Shown here: positions 12,665 to 33,347 of the stretch, piece after piece
Layout: each line of letters begins with the position of its first letter
How positions within the stretch are numbered: the stretch's first letter is position 1
Program-made: the position numbers and the translations under genes
Source of the DNA: Thermoleophilia bacterium
GTDB lineage: Bacteria; Actinomycetota; Thermoleophilia; Miltoncostaeales; Miltoncostaeaceae
Assembly: GCA_020438485.1 (NCBI GenBank)
Contig: JAGQUM010000007.1
Coordinates: 2,219 to 35,565, forward strand
DNA length: 33,347 nt
Direction: 5' to 3'
The notes under the pieces: model-generated
What the model saw: only the letters and a program-made list of their open reading frames with translations
The model's database searches: none
Told to the model about the DNA's origin: nothing

Positions 12665-12753
12665 GCACCACCGACATCATCGGCCTCGCCGCATCCGTGG
12701 CGGCGTTGATCTATCTCCTCGTCGCCCTCGTCTTCCCGGAGCGTCTCGGATGA
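12661..12753 (+). CDS. kdpF: KdpF-like small subunit of the K+ ATPase
   Basis: 30 residues from TTG 12661: a single TM helix followed by a short tail (LIYLLVALVFPERLG), the size and pattern of KdpF (about 29 residues). KdpF stabilises the KdpFABC potassium pump. It overlaps the preceding gene (TTGA) and the following kdpA fragment (ATGA), so the local kdp order is intact up to this point. With kdpA broken and no kdpB or kdpC in this window, it is probably a relic. Confidence 0.7.
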   Translation: MSTTDIIGLAASVAALIYLLVALVFPERLG

Positions 12754-13037
12754 CCGGCGAGGGGTGGGTGCAGGCCGTTCTCCTGCTGGCGTCCGTCGCC
12801 GCCACCACGCCGCTGCTGGGCCGCTACATCGCGCGTGTGTTCGGCGACGGGCCGGGACCGCTGGAGCGTGTGTTCGGGCCCGTCGAGCGGCTGGTATTCC
12901 GCGCCTCCGGCGTCGACCCGCACCGCGAGCAGACGTGGCGCGTCTACACCGTCGGCGTGCTGGCGTTCAGCGCCGTGAGCGTGGTGGAGCCGGGGATCGG
13001 CTACCGGTTCGAGCGCGACGACGCCGGGTCGGCCTGA
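12750..13037 (+). pseudogene. kdpA: Truncated kdpA (N-terminal fragment only)
   Basis: 95 residues against roughly 550 for KdpA. The first 75-80 residues look right: an N-terminal TM helix, then PLGRYIARVF, then a region ending in ERLVFRASGVDPHREQTWRVYTVGVLAFSAVSV, which matches the KdpA N-terminus (GVERVLFRALGV in E. coli; actinobacterial forms have EQ..Y). After about 12984 the similarity stops and VEPGIGYRFERDDAGSA is unlike KdpA. No other frame continues the homology, and the next gene on the opposite strand begins to overlap here. This indicates a deletion that removed the rest of kdpA and kdpB/C, or an assembly join. Confidence 0.75.
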
Positions 13038-27050: not shown

Positions 27051-28343
27051 CTAGCGCGCGTCCATTTCCACGTAGTCGCGCTCGTCGGAGCCGATGAAGA
27101 TCTGGCGCGGACGGGAGATCTTCTGCTCCTTGTCGTGGATCATCTCGTACCACTGGGCCAGCCATCCGGGGGCGCGGCCGATGGCGAACATGACGGTGAA
27201 CATCTCGGCCGGCAGGCCGAGCGCCTCGTAGATGAGGCCGGAGTAGAAGTCGACGTTCGGGTAGAGCTTGCGCTGCACGAAGTAGTCGTCGGCCAGCGCC
27301 GTCTCCTCGAGCTTCGTCGCGAGGTCCAGCAGCGGGTTGACACCGGTGACGGCGAACACCTCGTCGCAGGCCTTCTTGATGATGCGGGCCCGCGGGTCGT
27401 AGTTCTTGTACACCCGGTGGCCGAAGCCCATCAGGCGCTCCTTGCCCTCCTTCACGCCGTTCATGAACTCCTCGGCCGACTGGCCGCCCTCGATGCGGCG
27501 CAGCATCTTCAGCACGGCCTCGTTGGCGCCGCCGTGCAGCGGGCCGTACAGCGCGGCGATGCCGGCGGCGACGGCCGAGTAGACGTCCACCTGGGACGAG
27601 CCCACCGAGCGCACGGCACTGGTCGAGCAGTTCTGCTCGTGATCAGCGTGGAGGATCAGCAGCACGTCGAGCGCGTGCACCAGGTGCGGGTCGGGCGTGT
27701 ACGAGCCCTTGTCGTCCTGGTACAGCATCGTCAGGAAGTTCTCGCTGTAGCCCTTCGACGTGTCGGGCTTCACGAACGGCAGCCCCTTGCTGTGGCGGTA
27801 CAGGTACGCGCCCAGCGTGGCGATCTTGCCGATGATGTTGATGATCTGCGTGCGCTGCACCGCGTCGTCGGTGAGGTCGACGGCCTCGGGGTGGTTCGCA
27901 CCCAGCGCGGCGATGGCCGCGAGCAGCATCGCCATCGGGTGGGCGTCCCGCGGGAACGCCTCGATGAACTTCTCGATGTGGTCCGGGACGGGCATCGCCG
28001 CGACGACGTCCTTCTCCCACGCCTCGAGGGCGGCCTTCGACGGGAGCTCCCCGTCGAGCAGCAGGAGCGCCACCTCGAGGAAGCTGCTCTTGTCGGCGAG
28101 CTGCTCGATGGGGTAGCCGCGGTACCGCAGCACCCCGTTGTCGCCGTCGAGGTACGTCACCGCGCTGCGACACGAGGCCGTGTTCATGTACGCGGGGTCG
28201 TACGTCATCAGGCCGAACTCTTCATCGCTCGTCTTGATCTGCCGCAGATCGGTCGCGCGGATGGTCTCCTCGCTGATCGGGACCTCATACGACGTGCCCG
28301 TGCGGTTGTCGGTGATCGTGAGGGAGTCGGACTTGCTGGTCAT
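27051..28343 (-). CDS. gltA: Citrate synthase (type II, hexameric class)
   Basis: 430 residues, like E. coli GltA. It condenses oxaloacetate and acetyl-CoA into citrate. LILHADHEQNCSTSAVR (about 229-245), GPLHGGANEA with His270 (equivalent to E. coli His264), GFGHRVYKNYDPRARIIKKAC (His305 equivalent) and VDFYSGLIYEALG (Asp362 equivalent) form the active site. The N-terminal domain with YDPAYMNTASCRSAVTYLDGDNGVLRYRGYPIEQLA is typical of the NADH-sensitive type II enzymes. ATG 28343 is preceded by GAAGGTGG; the frame is open upstream, but homology starts near here. It is monocistronic, with terminator and promoter on either side. Confidence 0.97.
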   Translation of the reverse strand: MTSKSDSLTITDNRTGTSYEVPISEETIRATDLRQIKTSDEEFGLMTYDPAYMNTASCRSAVTYLDGDNGVLRYRGYPIEQLADKSSFLEVALLLLDGELPSKAALEAWEKDVVAAMPVPDHIEKFIEAFPRDAHPMAMLLAAIAALGANHPEAVDLTDDAVQRTQIINIIGKIATLGAYLYRHSKGLPFVKPDTSKGYSENFLTMLYQDDKGSYTPDPHLVHALDVLLILHADHEQNCSTSAVRSVGSSQVDVYSAVAAGIAALYGPLHGGANEAVLKMLRRIEGGQSAEEFMNGVKEGKERLMGFGHRVYKNYDPRARIIKKACDEVFAVTGVNPLLDLATKLEETALADDYFVQRKLYPNVDFYSGLIYEALGLPAEMFTVMFAIGRAPGWLAQWYEMIHDKEQKISRPRQIFIGSDERDYVEMDAR

Positions 28344-28606
28344 CTGCCACCTTCGACGCGGTTGCTCAGGTTCGGTGCGTAGCCCGATGGAGTCTAGTTG
28401 AGCCGGACGGGTCGGGGACCCCCCGGGAGACCGCCGGGACCGGGTCAGCGCTATCACACAACGGCCACCGGTTTGTCACCACGGCGGGCGGGCCCGTTGT
28501 CAGCGTGGTCGGCAACACACGCAACGCGCCGCGCGCGGTCCTTTCGTTCGTGAGATCCCCACGGGTCCGGCGCCGCAGCGCCCACTCCCCCTCCCAGGAG
28601 CCGCCC
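28344..28606. promoter_or_regulatory. Divergent region between gltA and the PHP-GT operon
   Basis: Leftward, TAGACT (28396-28391) is a likely gltA -10, giving a leader of about 40 bases. Rightward, no convincing promoter is seen; TATCAC near 28451 is one weak candidate. AGGAG at 28596-28600, six bases before GTG 28607, is a good ribosome binding site. Nothing else is recognisable. Confidence 0.35.
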
Positions 28607-31081
28607 GTGCGACGACTGTTCCGCCCCGCGCCCGCCCGCACCACGACGCGCGTGGATTTGCACCTGCACTCCCGGGCCTCCACCGACACCGGCAGCTGGT
28701 TCCTGTCGCGCGCGGTGATGCCCGAGTCGTTCGTGGACCCGGCCGACGCGTACCGCACCTGCAAAGCCCGCGGGATGGACATGGTCGCGCTGACCGACCA
28801 CAACACGATCGCGGGCGCCCTGGAGATCGCACACCACCCGGACGTCATCGTGGGCGTCGAGATCACCACCGGCTTCCCCGAGGAGCCGCTGGTCCAGCTG
28901 CACGTGCTGGCGTGGGGGGTCACCGAGGCCGACTGGGCCGAGCTTGACCGCGTCCGGCCCAACGTGTTCGAGCTGGTGGCGGAGCTGCGCGCGCGCAACA
29001 TCCCCCACGCGCTGGCGCACGCGCTGCACCGGGTGGGCGACGAGCTGACGGTGGACCACCTGGAGATCTGCCTGCTGCTGTTCCCGCTGTGGGAGGGCCG
29101 CAACGGCGCCCGCCCGGCGGTGAGCAACGAGGTGGGCGTGAGGATCGCGCGCTCGGCGTCGCCCGCGCTGCTGGCCCGCCTGGCCGAGAAGCACGGCATC
29201 CCCGCGTGCGGCGACGGACCGCCCGCCCTGACGGGCGGCAGCGACGACCACTCGCTGCTCGAGGCGTGCAACGCGTGGAGCGAGTTCCCGCGGTCGTCGA
29301 CCCCCGCCGAGGTGCTGGACCATCTGCGGGCCGGGCGCGTCGAGATGGGCGGGAACCACGGGGGCTCCACGGCCCTGGCCCACAGCGTGGGGACGCTGCT
29401 GCTCAAGCAGTACGCGAACTCCGGGGCGAAGGGGGTGCCGGACGCCATGCGCGGGGTGTTCTCGGACCTGATCCACCACCCGCTGGCCGACCTGCCCTCC
29501 CTCGGCGACGCCGCGGCGGCCCCGTCCGGGCGCGGCCACGGCCTGGGCCAGGACCTGATGCGCGACCTGCGCGGCGACAAGCGGTTCGTGATGCGCTACA
29601 GGGCGGCCGGGAAGCGCCCCGACAGCCCGGAGCGCTCGCGCGAGCGCCTGCGGATGGCCACGTCGTGGCTGCACGAGCGGGCCCTGGCGTCCGCGCTGTC
29701 GCCGGAGGGCTTCTCGCTGGGCCGGCTGGGCGCCCGCGTCGACGCGCTGACGGCGTCCGCCGCCGTGGCGGCCCCGTACTTCCTGGCCGCCCGCTGGATG
29801 AAGGGCGAGCGGCGCCACGCGGTGGACATGGAGCGCGAGTACTTCGGCGTGCCGGGACTTGAGCCCGAGCGGGGGCGCCCGCGGGTGCTGATGCTCACCG
29901 ACACGTTCGACGCGCTGAACGGGGCGGCCGGCACCATGCGCCGGCTGGCCGCCTGGTCGGCCGCGCAGCCCGACCGCCCGGTCACCGTCGTGACGTGCGC
30001 CCGCCGGGAGTCCGCCGATCCCGGCGTGCACCGGCTGCGCAGCGTCGTGGAGTGGCCCATGCCGGCCTACCCCAGCGACGACGTGCGCCTGGCCGTGCCG
30101 TCGCTGCTGGACCTGCTGCGCCTGGCCGACGAGTCGGGGACTGAGGTGATCCACGCCGCGACGCCCGGTCCCCTGGGCGTCGCGGGCCTGGTGGTCGCGC
30201 GGGCGCTGGGCATCCCGTTCGTCGCCAGCCACCACACCGAGCTGGCCCAGTACGCCCTGGACCTGACGGGCGACCGCCTGGCGGCCGGGCTGGTGGGTCA
30301 GGGCCTCGGCTGGTTCTACGGCCAGGCCGCGCGCGTCTACGTGCCGTCGCGGGTCAGCGGGCGGGGCCTGATGGACGCGGGCGTCGATCCCGAGCGGGTG
30401 TTCATCTTCGGCCGCGGCGTCGACCCGGACGCGTTCTCGCCCGCGCACCGCTCCTCCGCCGGGCGCCGCCGACTCGGGGCCAGGGGTGGAACGGTCGTTC
30501 TGTACGTGGGGCGCCTGTCGGCCGAGAAGGGCCTCGACCAACTGGCCGACGCGTTCCGGCGGGTGTCCGCGACACGGCCGGACCTGACGCTGGCGCTGGT
30601 GGGGGACGGTCCCCACCGTGACGCCCTGGCGAAGCGCCTGGCCGGCACGCGGCACCGTTTCGTCGGGCCGCTGCGCGGCAGCGAGCTGGCCGAGGCGTAC
30701 GCGTCGGCCGACATCTTCTGCCTGCCCAGCCTCACCGAGACGTTCGGCCAGGTGGTGGTCGAGGCGTCGTGCTCCGGGCTGCCGGTGATCGTGTCCGACC
30801 GCGGCGGGGCCTGCGAGCAGGTGCGCGCCGGGGAGACGGGGCTCGTCGCGAGGGGCGGGGAGGCCGAGCACGTCGCCGCGGCCATCGCGCGGCTCGCGGA
30901 CGAACCGGAGGAGCGGATGCGCATGGGCGCCGCGGCCCGCGCCCACGCGGCCTCGCGGGCCGGCTGGGACGAGGTGTTCTCCACGCTGGTGTCGGGGTAC
31001 GACACCGTTGCCGGGCACGCCGAGCCGGCGCCGGCGCCGGCGCGGCCGAGCCGCCTGACCACCGAAGGCGAGCGCGCGTGA
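28607..31081 (+). CDS. PHP-domain/GT4 glycosyltransferase fusion
   Basis: 824 residues from GTG 28607, chosen for the AGGAG six bases upstream. Residues about 15-225 form a PHP phosphoesterase with its metal ligands: DLHLH (His19, His21), LTDHN (Asp64, His65), GVEITTG (Glu85), His99, His134/138 and GGSDDHS (Asp213, His215). Residues 226-420 are a mostly helical linker of unknown kind. From about 425 a GT4-type glycosyltransferase runs from LMLTDTFDALNGAAGTMRRLA through VLYVGRLSAEKG and the EX7E motif ETFGQVVVE to the C-terminus. It probably transfers sugar from a nucleotide donor to a lipid or glycan, and the PHP part could remove a phosphate from donor, acceptor or product. Neither substrate is visible. 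The stop overlaps the next GT. Confidence 0.88.
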   Translation: MRRLFRPAPARTTTRVDLHLHSRASTDTGSWFLSRAVMPESFVDPADAYRTCKARGMDMVALTDHNTIAGALEIAHHPDVIVGVEITTGFPEEPLVQLHVLAWGVTEADWAELDRVRPNVFELVAELRARNIPHALAHALHRVGDELTVDHLEICLLLFPLWEGRNGARPAVSNEVGVRIARSASPALLARLAEKHGIPACGDGPPALTGGSDDHSLLEACNAWSEFPRSSTPAEVLDHLRAGRVEMGGNHGGSTALAHSVGTLLLKQYANSGAKGVPDAMRGVFSDLIHHPLADLPSLGDAAAAPSGRGHGLGQDLMRDLRGDKRFVMRYRAAGKRPDSPERSRERLRMATSWLHERALASALSPEGFSLGRLGARVDALTASAAVAAPYFLAARWMKGERRHAVDMEREYFGVPGLEPERGRPRVLMLTDTFDALNGAAGTMRRLAAWSAAQPDRPVTVVTCARRESADPGVHRLRSVVEWPMPAYPSDDVRLAVPSLLDLLRLADESGTEVIHAATPGPLGVAGLVVARALGIPFVASHHTELAQYALDLTGDRLAAGLVGQGLGWFYGQAARVYVPSRVSGRGLMDAGVDPERVFIFGRGVDPDAFSPAHRSSAGRRRLGARGGTVVLYVGRLSAEKGLDQLADAFRRVSATRPDLTLALVGDGPHRDALAKRLAGTRHRFVGPLRGSELAEAYASADIFCLPSLTETFGQVVVEASCSGLPVIVSDRGGACEQVRAGETGLVARGGEAEHVAAAIARLADEPEERMRMGAAARAHAASRAGWDEVFSTLVSGYDTVAGHAEPAPAPARPSRLTTEGERA

Positions 31082-32217
31082 CGGTGGCCGACGGCCCCCG
31101 GGTGGTGGACGTCACGCAGTGGTACTCCCCCACGTCAGGCGGCATCCGCACGTACCTCCACGCGAAGGCGGAATGGGCGGCGAGCACCGGGGCGTTCCAC
31201 GCCGCGGTGCTCACGGGCCCGCGGGACGGGGTATCGACCGTCGCGGGAAGCCCGGCCGTGCTGGTGCGCGGCCGCACCCCGCGCGCCACGTGGGGATACC
31301 GCGTCGCGTTGCGTGCCCGCGGCGTGCTGGCCGCCGTCGAGCGGCTCCGTCCCGACGTCATCGTGGTGCATGACGCCCTCGCGTTTCCGCGGTCGCTGGC
31401 CGAGTGGGCCTCCGACGCCGGCGTGCGGGTCGTGCAGGTGTGTCACTCGCACCTGGCCGACGCCGTGCGGGGCGCGCCGCGGATCGTGCGCAGGCCGGCG
31501 GGCGCCGCGCTGACCGTGATCCAGCGCCGTGCCCTCACCGTGGGGGAGGTGGTCCTCGTGGCCTCTCCCGTGGTGCGCGAGGCCATCCGGGGCGGGGCGC
31601 CCGGGCCCGACGTGGTGGTGTCGCCTCTCGGCATCGACCTCGACACGTTCCGGCGCGCCACCCCGGACCCCGAGCTGCGCCGGTGTCTCGGCGTCCCGGA
31701 CGGCGCGCCGCTGCTGCTGTACGCCGGCCGCCTGTCGCGGGAGAAGGCCGTCGACCTGTTGCCCGGCGTGGTGCGCGGCGTCGAGGACGGCGTGCTGGTG
31801 GTGGCCGGCACCGGCGCGGCACGGACGCGGCTGGAGCAGCAATGCCGCCGGGCGGGGGTCGGAGCGCGGGTGCGTTGGATGGGCCACGTGTCCGACCGCG
31901 ACCAGATGGCGAGCCTCATGGCGACCGCCGACTGCTTCGTCCACCCCAACGCCCGCGAGCCGTTCGGGCTGGCGCTGCTCGAGGCCCTCGCCGCCGGGTG
32001 CCGCCTCGTGGCCCCGCGGTCCATCGGCATCGCCGACATCGTGGGTGGCCGCGGGGCCGTGCTGGTGGATCCCCACGACCCCGACGCGCTCGCCGCCGGC
32101 GTGGCGACGGCGCTCGGCCGGCCCCGCCCCCGCCCTGACCTCGACGACCTGTCGTGGAACGCGGTGTTCCGCCGCGAGTGGACCCTGTACCGCAGCCTCG
32201 TGAACCAGACCGCGTGA
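31078..32217 (+). CDS. GT4-family glycosyltransferase
   Basis: 379 residues from GTG 31078 (GTGA overlap with the fusion gene). N-terminal VTQWYSPTSGGIRTYLHAKAEWAA is the acceptor-side loop of GT4 enzymes of the PimB/MgtA type; the second domain has LLYAGRLSREKAVDLLPGVV, VVAGTGAARTRLE and the donor-binding EX7E motif EPFGLALLE. It contains no signal peptide or TM helix, so it acts at the inner face of the membrane. Mannosyl- or glucosyltransfer to a lipid is typical of such pairs, but the sugar cannot be deduced. It probably acts in sequence with the preceding fusion enzyme. Confidence 0.9.
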   Translation: MTVADGPRVVDVTQWYSPTSGGIRTYLHAKAEWAASTGAFHAAVLTGPRDGVSTVAGSPAVLVRGRTPRATWGYRVALRARGVLAAVERLRPDVIVVHDALAFPRSLAEWASDAGVRVVQVCHSHLADAVRGAPRIVRRPAGAALTVIQRRALTVGEVVLVASPVVREAIRGGAPGPDVVVSPLGIDLDTFRRATPDPELRRCLGVPDGAPLLLYAGRLSREKAVDLLPGVVRGVEDGVLVVAGTGAARTRLEQQCRRAGVGARVRWMGHVSDRDQMASLMATADCFVHPNAREPFGLALLEALAAGCRLVAPRSIGIADIVGGRGAVLVDPHDPDALAAGVATALGRPRPRPDLDDLSWNAVFRREWTLYRSLVNQTA

Positions 32218-33023
32218 TCCGGTCGCTCGTCGTCTCCATCCACGACGTGGCGCCCGCCACGCGGGACGAGTGCCACGCGCTGCGCGTCATCGTCCGCGGG
32301 GTCGCGGGGGACGTCCCGGTGAGCCTGCTGGCCGTTCCGCGCTACCACGGCGAGCAGTGGGACCGCGCCACCACGGAGTGGCTGCGCGCCCGCGTGCGCG
32401 AGGGCGACGAGCCCGTCGTCCACGGCCTGGTGCACCAGGACGGCCGCGGCCGCGACGGCGCCGAGTTCGGGCGCCGCGACTCGCTGGGCGACACGATCGC
32501 GCGCCTGTCGTTCGCGGTCGCCGAGGTCCGCGCCCTGGGCGTACACCCCGAGGGCTTCGTGGCGCCCGCGTACGCGCACCCCGATGCGCTGGAGCGGGCT
32601 CTGCGCACCAGCGGGCTGCGCTGGTGGGCCACCCGCGGTCGCCTGACCGGCCGGGCCGGCCGCGTGGCGCTGCCCAGCGTGGGCCTCGGCGCCTCCACGC
32701 GGACGCGGCGCGTGGGGAGCGTCCTCACCGCTCCGCTGGCCGCCAGGGCCATGGCCGCGGCGCCGCGGGCGCGCCTTGATCTGCACCCCGCGGACCTGCA
32801 CCACCCGTCCCTGGCGCGGTCGGTCCGGCCGTTGCTGGAGGCCCTGCTGGGGCAGGGGCGGGTCGTCGTGACGCACGCCCGCCTGCGGGACGAGCAGGCG
32901 CCGCCGCCCGGCGAGGCGCACGGTGATGACGGTTCCGAGGCGGGCGCTGCTACTGTTGCGGGCGTCCTGCCCACGGGCGGGACGCCCGGCACGCGCCGCC
33001 TCAGGCGACGCAACGCCGCCTGA
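32214..33023 (+). CDS. DUF2334-type polysaccharide deacetylase
   Basis: 269 residues from GTG 32214 (GTGA overlap). VVSIHDVAPAT has the His-Asp pair near the start that binds metal in carbohydrate esterase family 4-like folds; EPVVHGLVHQDG, EGFVAPAYAHPDALERAL and LDLHPADLHHPSL supply the other conserved histidines and the family's 'FxAPxY' motif. The last 40 or so residues (EAHGDDGSEAGAATVAGVLPTGG) are low complexity. No signal peptide is present, which suggests deacetylation of a cytoplasmic, perhaps lipid-linked sugar made by the two upstream transferases. This three-gene order looks like a dedicated glycoconjugate step. Confidence 0.85.
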   Translation: MIRSLVVSIHDVAPATRDECHALRVIVRGVAGDVPVSLLAVPRYHGEQWDRATTEWLRARVREGDEPVVHGLVHQDGRGRDGAEFGRRDSLGDTIARLSFAVAEVRALGVHPEGFVAPAYAHPDALERALRTSGLRWWATRGRLTGRAGRVALPSVGLGASTRTRRVGSVLTAPLAARAMAAAPRARLDLHPADLHHPSLARSVRPLLEALLGQGRVVVTHARLRDEQAPPPGEAHGDDGSEAGAATVAGVLPTGGTPGTRRLRRRNAA

Positions 33024-33085: not shown

Positions 33086-33347
33086 ATGGCCGAGCACGAG
33101 AGCTCGCTTGCCGTCCTGGTTGATTTCGAGAACATGGCCCGCCCCGGCGCGAAGGGCCGCGGCGACTTCGAGATCCACCTCGTCCTCGACCGGCTTGCCG
33201 ACAAGGGCCGCGTGCTGGTCAAGCGCGCGTACGCCGACTGGAGCCGCTATCGCGACGCCCGGCACGAGCTGATGAACGCGGGCCTCGAGCTCATCGAGAT
33301 GCCGTCCGCGCGCGAGGGCGCCAAGAACCGCGCCGACATCAAGATGG
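33086..33347 (+). CDS. NYN-domain (LabA/DUF88-like) protein, 3' end missing
   Basis: The first 87 residues are present, running off the right edge. LAVLVDFENMARPGAKG is the N-terminal acidic motif of the NYN/PIN-like nuclease fold, and VKRAYADWSRYRDARHELMNAGLELIEMPSAREGAKNRADIKM is the central part with the conserved Asp of the metal site (NRADIKM). NYN proteins are predicted RNases; many carry a C-terminal OST-HTH/LOTUS domain, which would lie outside this window. The ATG at 33086 follows AGGAG by seven bases. Confidence 0.9.
   Translation, partial: MAEHESSLAVLVDFENMARPGAKGRGDFEIHLVLDRLADKGRVLVKRAYADWSRYRDARHELMNAGLELIEMPSAREGAKNRADIKM

What the first reader, a model, noticed from the sequence alone, without database searches (positions are those of the whole stretch)
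28607..33023. PHP-glycosyltransferase fusion in a tightly coupled operon with a GT4 and a DUF2334 deacetylase
Seen: one 824-residue protein joins a PHP phosphoesterase with complete metal-binding residues to a GT4 domain through about 200 unassigned residues, and its stop overlaps a second GT4 gene, which overlaps a deacetylase gene (GTGA twice). Known: PHP domains hydrolyse phosphoesters, GT4 enzymes use nucleotide or phosphate sugars, and DUF2334 is deacetylase-like. Inferred: a self-contained route that assembles a sugar on a carrier, trims a phosphate and removes an acetyl group, analogous to GPI, mycothiol or PIM biosynthesis, where transfer, dephosphorylation and deacetylation follow each other. 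I do not recognise a described pathway with this exact gene set.
Basis: partly seen in the sequence, partly recalled or inferred. Interest (0 to 1): 0.6.

Follow-up and report, generated by a model that had tools for sequence, protein, structure and literature searches.

The report
PHP-glycosyltransferase operon for membrane sugar lipids
Three tightly joined genes encode a protein that joins a phosphate-cutting domain to a sugar-adding domain, a second sugar-adding enzyme, and an enzyme that strips an acetyl group; related gene sets in distant bacterial phyla suggest that they build sugar-bearing, probably amino-sugar, membrane lipids, but no activity has been tested.

Summary
An 824-aa PHP-GT4 fusion (28607-31081), a GT4 (31078-32217) and a DUF2334 deacetylase (32214-33023) overlap by GTGA twice. 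The fusion is an old, widespread family: 74 of 74 aligned full-length copies from many phyla keep it, with metal ligands almost all intact. The "linker" is a confidently modelled all-helical domain. Deacetylase genes adjoin the fusion in four separate clades, in two gene orders; in a fifth clade an unrelated PIG-L de-N-acetylase takes that place. All 25 deacetylases and 21 partner GT4s match the recently named GpgD and GpgS families (glucosaminyl-phosphatidylglycerol synthesis), the window's proteins well below equivalog cut-offs. A GpgF-type flippase follows in two relatives. Elsewhere the fusion adjoins ornithine-lipid, phosphatidylserine decarboxylase, diglucosyl-DAG synthase-like and Pst/PhoU genes. 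Best reading: an (amino)glycolipid pathway resembling GpgSDF/HexSDF, with the fusion perhaps a one-chain counterpart of the PlcP-Agt lipid-remodelling pair. What the PHP domain cleaves is unknown. New variant of a known kind.

The parts
28596..28600 (+). AGGAG ribosome-binding-like site for the fusion gene
   Evidence: read directly; 6 nt before the GTG at 28607
28607..31081 (+). PHP-GT4 fusion gene, 824 aa (P0001)
   Evidence: one open frame in all 73 homologous loci used
28643..29356 (+). PHP phosphoesterase-like domain, about residues 13-250; ligands H19, H21, D64, H65, E85, H99, H138, D213, D214, H215
   Evidence: RNase AM, TM0559, BAD_1165, PsfC, Cv1693 folds; Pfam PHP and PHP_C just under cut-off
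29357..29872 (+). all-helical linker domain, about residues 251-422, ending in a helix of about 43 residues
   Evidence: mean pLDDT 85.7 and 91.5; no transmembrane-like stretch in it
29873..31012 (+). GT4 (GT-B) domain, about residues 423-802; E711 and E719 of the EX7E motif
31078..32217 (+). second GT4 gene, 379 aa (P0002), nearest to GpgS
   Evidence: GTGA overlap 31078-31081
32214..33023 (+). DUF2334 deacetylase gene, 269 aa (P0003), nearest to GpgD; H10-D11, H70-G-x-x-H74, E84, H191, D194
   Evidence: GTGA overlap 32214-32217

Best explanation
The operon makes a sugar-bearing, probably amino-sugar, membrane lipid. Proposed order: (1) the fusion glycosylates a glycerolipid; its PHP domain removes a phosphoester from the same substrate or its precursor, for example to give diacylglycerol, so that one chain does what PlcP plus Agt do as two proteins; (2) the second GT4 (GpgS-like) adds a further sugar, likely GlcNAc; (3) the DUF2334 enzyme (GpgD-like) removes the N-acetyl group, leaving a positively charged glucosamine; (4) an UPF0104-type flippase, linked in some relatives and unlinked here, moves the lipid outward. 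Shown: gene structure, domains, conserved catalytic residues, linkage across phyla, nearest families, lipid and phosphate gene neighbours in relatives. Inferred: every substrate, the order of steps, and what the PHP domain cleaves. My estimates: membrane (amino)glycolipid pathway 0.65; deacetylation of a lipid-linked GlcNAc 0.65; phosphoester removal on the lipid path by the PHP domain 0.35.
For: Second GT4: GlcN_PG_synth is best at 148 bits, the next family 74; deacetylase: GlcNAc_PG_deac is the only hit, 103 bits; the fusion's GT half is also best with GlcN_PG_synth, 132 bits. All 21 partner GT4s and all 25 deacetylases from fusion loci match these two families. Of the 24 GT4 matches in the window's genome, the two best with GlcN_PG_synth are these two adjacent genes, and the deacetylase is its only GlcNAc_PG_deac match. 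Seven of the eight genomes with a GpgD-like gene among 61 have it beside the fusion. DUF2334 adjoins the fusion in four clades and two gene orders, at least 8 changes on the tree. PIG-L replaces it in a fifth clade. A flippase follows in L036 and L037. Lipid and phosphate neighbours elsewhere: OlsB and PlsC (L088, L068, L124), PSD (5 loci), diglucosyl-DAG synthase-like (L068), PstS-PstC-PstB-PhoU and DUF47 (L116), PstS or DUF47 (L045, L092, L097, L121). Five of six verrucomicrobial genomes tested with the two-gene form carry a strong GpgS homologue elsewhere.
Against: No activity was tested. The window's proteins score far below the equivalog cut-offs (148 of 480; 103 of 280). Other GT4 families also match the fusion (MshA 107 bits). 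The window itself has no Pho, Ols, Psd or flippase gene beside the operon and no Streptomyces-type Pho box by a simple pattern. Many fusions have no deacetylase beside them (L038, L039, L041 in the window's own family; most proteobacterial and planctomycete loci), so deacetylation is not universal. In other lineages the fusion adjoins radical-SAM genes of unknown role.
Confidence: 0.62

Rival explanations
1. Mycothiol-like logic: the fusion's GT half makes GlcNAc on a phosphorylated soluble acceptor such as inositol phosphate, the PHP half removes the phosphate (the MshA2 step), the deacetylase makes the free amine.
For: MshA and BshA are among the best folds and profiles for the GT half; GT-phosphatase fusions of this logic are known in sugar-phosphate synthesis (own knowledge); PIG-L, the MshB/BshB fold, replaces DUF2334 in one clade.
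Against: The best-scoring family is a phospholipid GT; neighbours in relatives are lipid and phosphate genes; a flippase is linked in L036 and L037; there is a second GT that this logic does not need; MshC best 249 bits against a cut-off of 485 in the window's genome.
Confidence: 0.15
2. GlcN-PG synthesis proper: the second GT4 and the deacetylase make glucosaminyl-phosphatidylglycerol as in P. aeruginosa, and the PHP-GT makes a separate glycolipid with which they are merely co-expressed.
For: Families and order GT4-deacetylase as in gpgSDF; a GpgF-type flippase linked in L036 and L037.
Against: Scores are far below the equivalog cut-offs; in Verrucomicrobia the deacetylase sits beside the PHP-GT while the GpgS homologue is elsewhere in the genome, so the deacetylase tracks the PHP-GT rather than GpgS.
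Confidence: 0.25
3. Polysaccharide or other cell-envelope glycan assembly unrelated to membrane lipids, with the PHP domain as a regulatory phosphatase of the CpsB type.
For: GT4 enzymes are common in exopolysaccharide clusters; CpsB/YwqE are PHP-fold tyrosine phosphatases and appear at Z about 7.
Against: No polymerase, flippase (Wzx) or chain-length genes recognised beside the operon in the window's gene list; the PHP half is far closer to COG0613-type enzymes (Z 16-19) than to CpsB (Z about 7).
Confidence: 0.06

Closest known systems
GpgSDF, glucosaminyl-phosphatidylglycerol synthesis in Pseudomonas aeruginosa (PMC12713373)
   Same: GT4 gene followed by a DUF2334/COG3233-type deacetylase; an UPF0104-type flippase linked in some relatives; best-scoring families for both proteins
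   Different: The paper names no PHP protein and its operon has one glycosyltransferase; the window's proteins are far below the equivalog cut-offs; no linked flippase in the window; lipid acceptor unknown
HexSDF, aminohexosyl-hexosyldiradylglycerol synthesis in Clostridioides difficile (PMC10128005)
   Same: Sugar addition then N-deacetylation of a glycolipid, three-gene operon logic
   Different: HexS is annotated as an MGDG synthase-type enzyme, not GT4; HexF is an MprF-like flippase; no PHP domain in the operon as described
PlcP-Agt phosphate-limitation lipid remodelling (PMC4796936); glycolipid synthase Dde_3613 of Desulfovibrio alaskensis (PMC5193443)
   Same: A phosphoester hydrolase coupled to a lipid glycosyltransferase; Pho and ornithine-lipid neighbours in some relatives; Desulfovibrio-type genomes carry the PHP-GT (L063, L066, L094, L096)
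   Different: PHP rather than PlcP, and fused; whether Dde_3613 itself carries a PHP domain is not stated in the paper and was not tested
MshA/MshA2/MshB, mycothiol synthesis
   Same: GT4, a phosphatase step, then N-deacetylation
   Different: Deacetylase is DUF2334, not PIG-L; no MshC over cut-off; fusion scores 107 bits against a MshA cut-off of 462.5

Membership tests
GpgSDF (GlcN-PG synthesis) | GT scores over the GpgS equivalog cut-off (480 bits) | tested here: not met
   P0002 148 bits, fusion 132 bits
GpgSDF (GlcN-PG synthesis) | deacetylase scores over the GpgD equivalog cut-off (280 bits) | tested here: not met
   P0003 103 bits, but no other family matches
GpgSDF (GlcN-PG synthesis) | GT4 and deacetylase genes adjacent and co-directional | tested here: met
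   GTGA overlap 32214-32217
GpgSDF (GlcN-PG synthesis) | UPF0104/LPG_synthase_TM flippase in the operon | tested here: not met
   absent beside the window's operon; present in relatives L036, L037; unlinked homologue at G000:C80
GpgSDF (GlcN-PG synthesis) | makes GlcNAc-PG and GlcN-PG | not testable with these tools
   needs lipidomics
HexSDF | GT of the MGDG-synthase type (HexS) | tested here: not met
   both window GTs are GT4 by Pfam
PlcP-Agt lipid remodelling | PlcP-type metallophosphoesterase beside the GT | tested here: not met
   the hydrolase is a PHP-type domain; no calcineurin-like metallophosphoesterase family in its Pfam matches
PlcP-Agt lipid remodelling | association with phosphate-starvation genes | tested here: inconclusive
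   Pst/PhoU/DUF47 beside L116, L045, L092, L097, L121; none beside the window's operon; no Pho box by pattern
Mycothiol synthesis | MshA equivalog (462.5 bits) and PIG-L MshB | tested here: not met
   fusion 107 bits; deacetylase is DUF2334
Mycothiol synthesis | MshC in the genome | tested here: inconclusive
   best 249 bits, under the cut-off of 485.1, possibly CysS; draft genome
PHP phosphoesterase superfamily | metal-binding HxH, DH, E, H, H and D/H residues | tested here: met
   all present; six of ten invariant in 74 rows
PHP phosphoesterase superfamily | PHP fold | tested here: met
   3e38 and 3o0f at Z 19.0, rmsd 2.7-3.0 over 187-193 residues; RNase AM E 6e-8
PHP phosphoesterase superfamily | hydrolysis of a phosphoester | not testable with these tools
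   needs an assay
GT4 glycosyltransferases | GT-B fold and EX7E motif | tested here: met
   Pfam and fold; E719 74 of 74, E711 E or D in all

The most novel reading that the evidence does not exclude
The PHP-GT is a single-chain phospholipid-to-glycolipid converting enzyme: its PHP domain removes the phosphate head of a phospholipid or phosphatidate and its GT domain caps the freed diacylglycerol with a sugar, with N-deacetylation giving cationic aminoglycolipids that stand in for phospholipids in several phyla. The PHP domain would then be a lipid phosphohydrolase, an activity I know of for no PHP enzyme.
Probability: 0.28. Interest if true: 0.72.

Novelty: new variant of a known kind. Interest (0 to 1): 0.52.

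Why it matters
It would extend the recently found GlcN-lipid pathways to a set with a new kind of part, give a function to an uncharacterised fusion family found in many phyla and in about a third of the genomes sampled from the window's class, and name a candidate gene for phosphorus-free or cationic membrane lipids in bacteria whose lipid enzymes are mostly unknown. Both the module and the PHP step can be tested by expressing a few genes in E. coli.

Tried and rejected
Mycothiol-like route: considered, less favoured. Pho box in the window: none by a simple two-repeat pattern with up to 3 mismatches; weak evidence, as other repeat forms were not tried. Promoter and terminator scan: nothing, which says little at such high G+C. 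Radical-SAM partner in seven loci: no named family close, left open. The helical linker: no PDB row covers it well, but it was never searched by itself, so its fold is not claimed as new. My first gene caller (GC3-based) placed genes badly in 73% G+C and was replaced by one trained on the fusion's codons. Literature: no paper in the held library describes a PHP-GT fusion with DUF2334; absence from that library is not absence from the literature.
Full report
Observation. The three genes are as described. 28607-31081 gives 824 residues, 31078-32217 gives 379 and 32214-33023 gives 269, with GTGA stop-start overlaps. An AGGAG stands 6 nt before the first GTG. Pfam finds GT4 domains in the first two and DUF2334 in the third; the PHP half falls just under Pfam's cut-offs, so I tested it by conservation and fold. 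The window is 68-78% G+C along its length and lies on contig C18 of a 2.58 Mb draft genome, 95% complete.

The fusion is an old family. Among 61 related genomes, nine relatives of the window's own family carry a full-length copy at 48-75% identity, each adjacent to a GT4. A scan of named genomes with the PHP domain found relatives in Desulfovibrio and Syntrophobacter types, Verrucomicrobia, Aquificales, Planctomycetes, Nitrospirae, Chloroflexi and Solirubrobacterales, among others. 73 loci carry PHP and GT in one open frame. In the window's class, 46 of 149 sampled genomes have a full-length PHP-plus-helical match, with a clean gap between these (at least 295 bits) and the rest (46 bits or less). 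In the 74-row alignment H19, H21, D64, H65, H138 and D213 never vary; E85 is Q in six rows, five of them from Verrucomicrobia; H99, D214 and H215 vary in one or two.

Structure. The whole fusion models at pLDDT 85.7 and PHP-plus-linker at 91.5. The GT half is closest to PimB', MshA and BshA. The PHP half is closest to COG0613-type enzymes: BVU_3505 and BAD_1165 (Z 19), TM0559 (Z 18), PsfC (Z 17), Cv1693 with AMP (Z 17) and RNase AM. Characterised relatives such as RNase AM and Cv1693 act on nucleotide phosphoesters (entry titles and own knowledge), so lipid phosphate is a guess from context, not from fold. Residues about 251-422 form a helical domain ending in a helix of some 43 residues, with no transmembrane-like stretch.

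Which enzymes these resemble. NCBIfam holds two equivalogs, GlcN_PG_synth and GlcNAc_PG_deac, which I take to represent GpgS and GpgD of Pseudomonas aeruginosa, where GpgS puts GlcNAc on phosphatidylglycerol and GpgD removes the acetyl group (PMC12713373). The window's GT4 scores 148 bits with the first (next family 74) and its deacetylase 103 bits with the second and nothing else. These are below the cut-offs of 480 and 280, so relatives, not members. The pattern holds for the whole set: all 21 partner GT4s and all 25 deacetylases from fusion loci match. In the window's genome, out of 24 GT4 matches the two best are the adjacent ones here, and the deacetylase is the only GlcNAc_PG_deac match. 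The deacetylases keep H10, H70-G-x-x-H74, E84 and H191 in all 25 rows, and D11 and D194 in nearly all.

Linkage is beyond chance. DUF2334 genes adjoin the fusion in 24 loci besides the window. The window's genome holds two DUF2334 genes, so adjacency within two genes by luck would be well under 1% per locus (my estimate). Related loci share ancestry, but on a tree of the fusions the DUF2334 neighbours fall in four separated groups (the window's family, Solirubrobacterales, an Aquificales-Thermodesulfobacteriota group, Verrucomicrobia) with at least 8 changes, and in two gene orders: after PHP-GT in Actinomycetota, before PHP-GT in the others. L101, titled Acidobacteria, groups inside the Aquificales, so it may be a mislabelled bin. 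In a fifth group (L042, L043, L047, L062) the gene right after the fusion is a PIG-L de-N-acetylase: a different family with the same chemistry in the same place. Seven of the eight genomes with a GpgD-like gene among 61 have it beside the fusion. In Verrucomicrobia the pair is DUF2334 and PHP-GT alone, yet five of six such genomes tested carry a strong GpgS homologue elsewhere (278-293 bits); in the neighbourhoods read it stands beside an acetyltransferase-like gene rather than a deacetylase.

Lipid and phosphate context. A GpgF-type flippase (LPG_synthase_TM, 104 bits) follows the deacetylase in L036 and begins likewise in L037; the window's genome has its best homologue unlinked on contig C80 (171 bits). 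In other phyla the fusion lies near OlsB and PlsC (L088, in line with the DUF2334 gene; L068; L124), beside phosphatidylserine decarboxylase (L069, L073, L074, L075; 2.5 kb away in L068), beside a diglucosyl-DAG synthase-like enzyme (L068, 241 bits), and near phosphate-uptake genes (PstS, PstC, PstB, PhoU and DUF47 in L116; PstS or DUF47 in L045, L092, L097, L121). Ornithine lipids and glycolipids are common phosphorus-free substitutes for phospholipids under phosphate limitation, and PlcP next to the glycosyltransferase Agt is a known gene pair for it (PMC4796936). In Desulfovibrio alaskensis a 'glycosyltransferase group I', Dde_3613, is needed for all glycolipids under phosphate limitation (PMC5193443); Desulfovibrio-type genomes carry the PHP-GT, but I could not test whether Dde_3613 is one.

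Mechanism. The best-supported reading is a membrane (amino)glycolipid pathway: sugar transfer to a lipid by the fusion, a further, likely GlcNAc, transfer by the second GT4, and N-deacetylation to a cationic glucosamine. It works like GpgSDF and HexSDF but is not a member of either (membership table). The PHP domain's conserved ligands mean it is probably an active hydrolase; that it removes a lipid phosphoester is my preferred guess at 0.35. Alternatives are given with odds. The deacetylase is dispensable in some relatives (L038, L039, L041 have PHP-GT and GT4 without it), so the core shared product may be a plain glycolipid, with amination as an option.

Limits. Homology below equivalog level, gene neighbourhoods and models only; no substrate is known. 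Many loci come from metagenome bins. The window itself shows no lipid or Pho neighbour: upstream is a divergent citrate synthase gene, downstream a NYN-domain gene. The fold of the helical domain was not searched alone. Whether others have described the PHP-GT cannot be settled from the held library.

Noticed in passing
window 12750-13037 (+): A 95-aa ORF matches only the first 70 of 548 positions of KdpA (46.8 bits) and stops: a truncated or decayed potassium-transporter gene.
   Followed up: no
L072, L077, L080, L084, L086, L124, L132: A radical-SAM gene adjoins the PHP-GT in seven loci of Desulfobacterota, Geobacteraceae, Nitrospirae and Planctomycetes types; no named family is close. Possibly a further lipid-modifying step.
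   Followed up: partly
L142 4368-6193, L143 4478-6431, L145 3544-5277: In Verrucomicrobia the strong GpgS homologue is paired with an acetyltransferase-like (GNAT by eye) gene in an overlapping or adjoining arrangement, behind a gene that looks like thioredoxin reductase.
   Followed up: no
L116 981-18549: In a Solirubrobacterales genome the PHP-GT lies between two sets of phosphate-transport-like genes, with a PF04185 phosphoesterase 1.9 kb upstream.
   Followed up: partly
window 27051-28343 (-) and 33086-33347 (+): The operon sits between a divergent citrate synthase gene and a NYN-domain gene; citrate synthase is also divergent upstream in L033, L034, L040 and others, and a similar NYN-type gene follows in L040.
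   Followed up: partly
L101: A contig titled Acidobacteria groups inside the Aquificales on the fusion tree and shares their gene order: probably a mislabelled bin.
   Followed up: no
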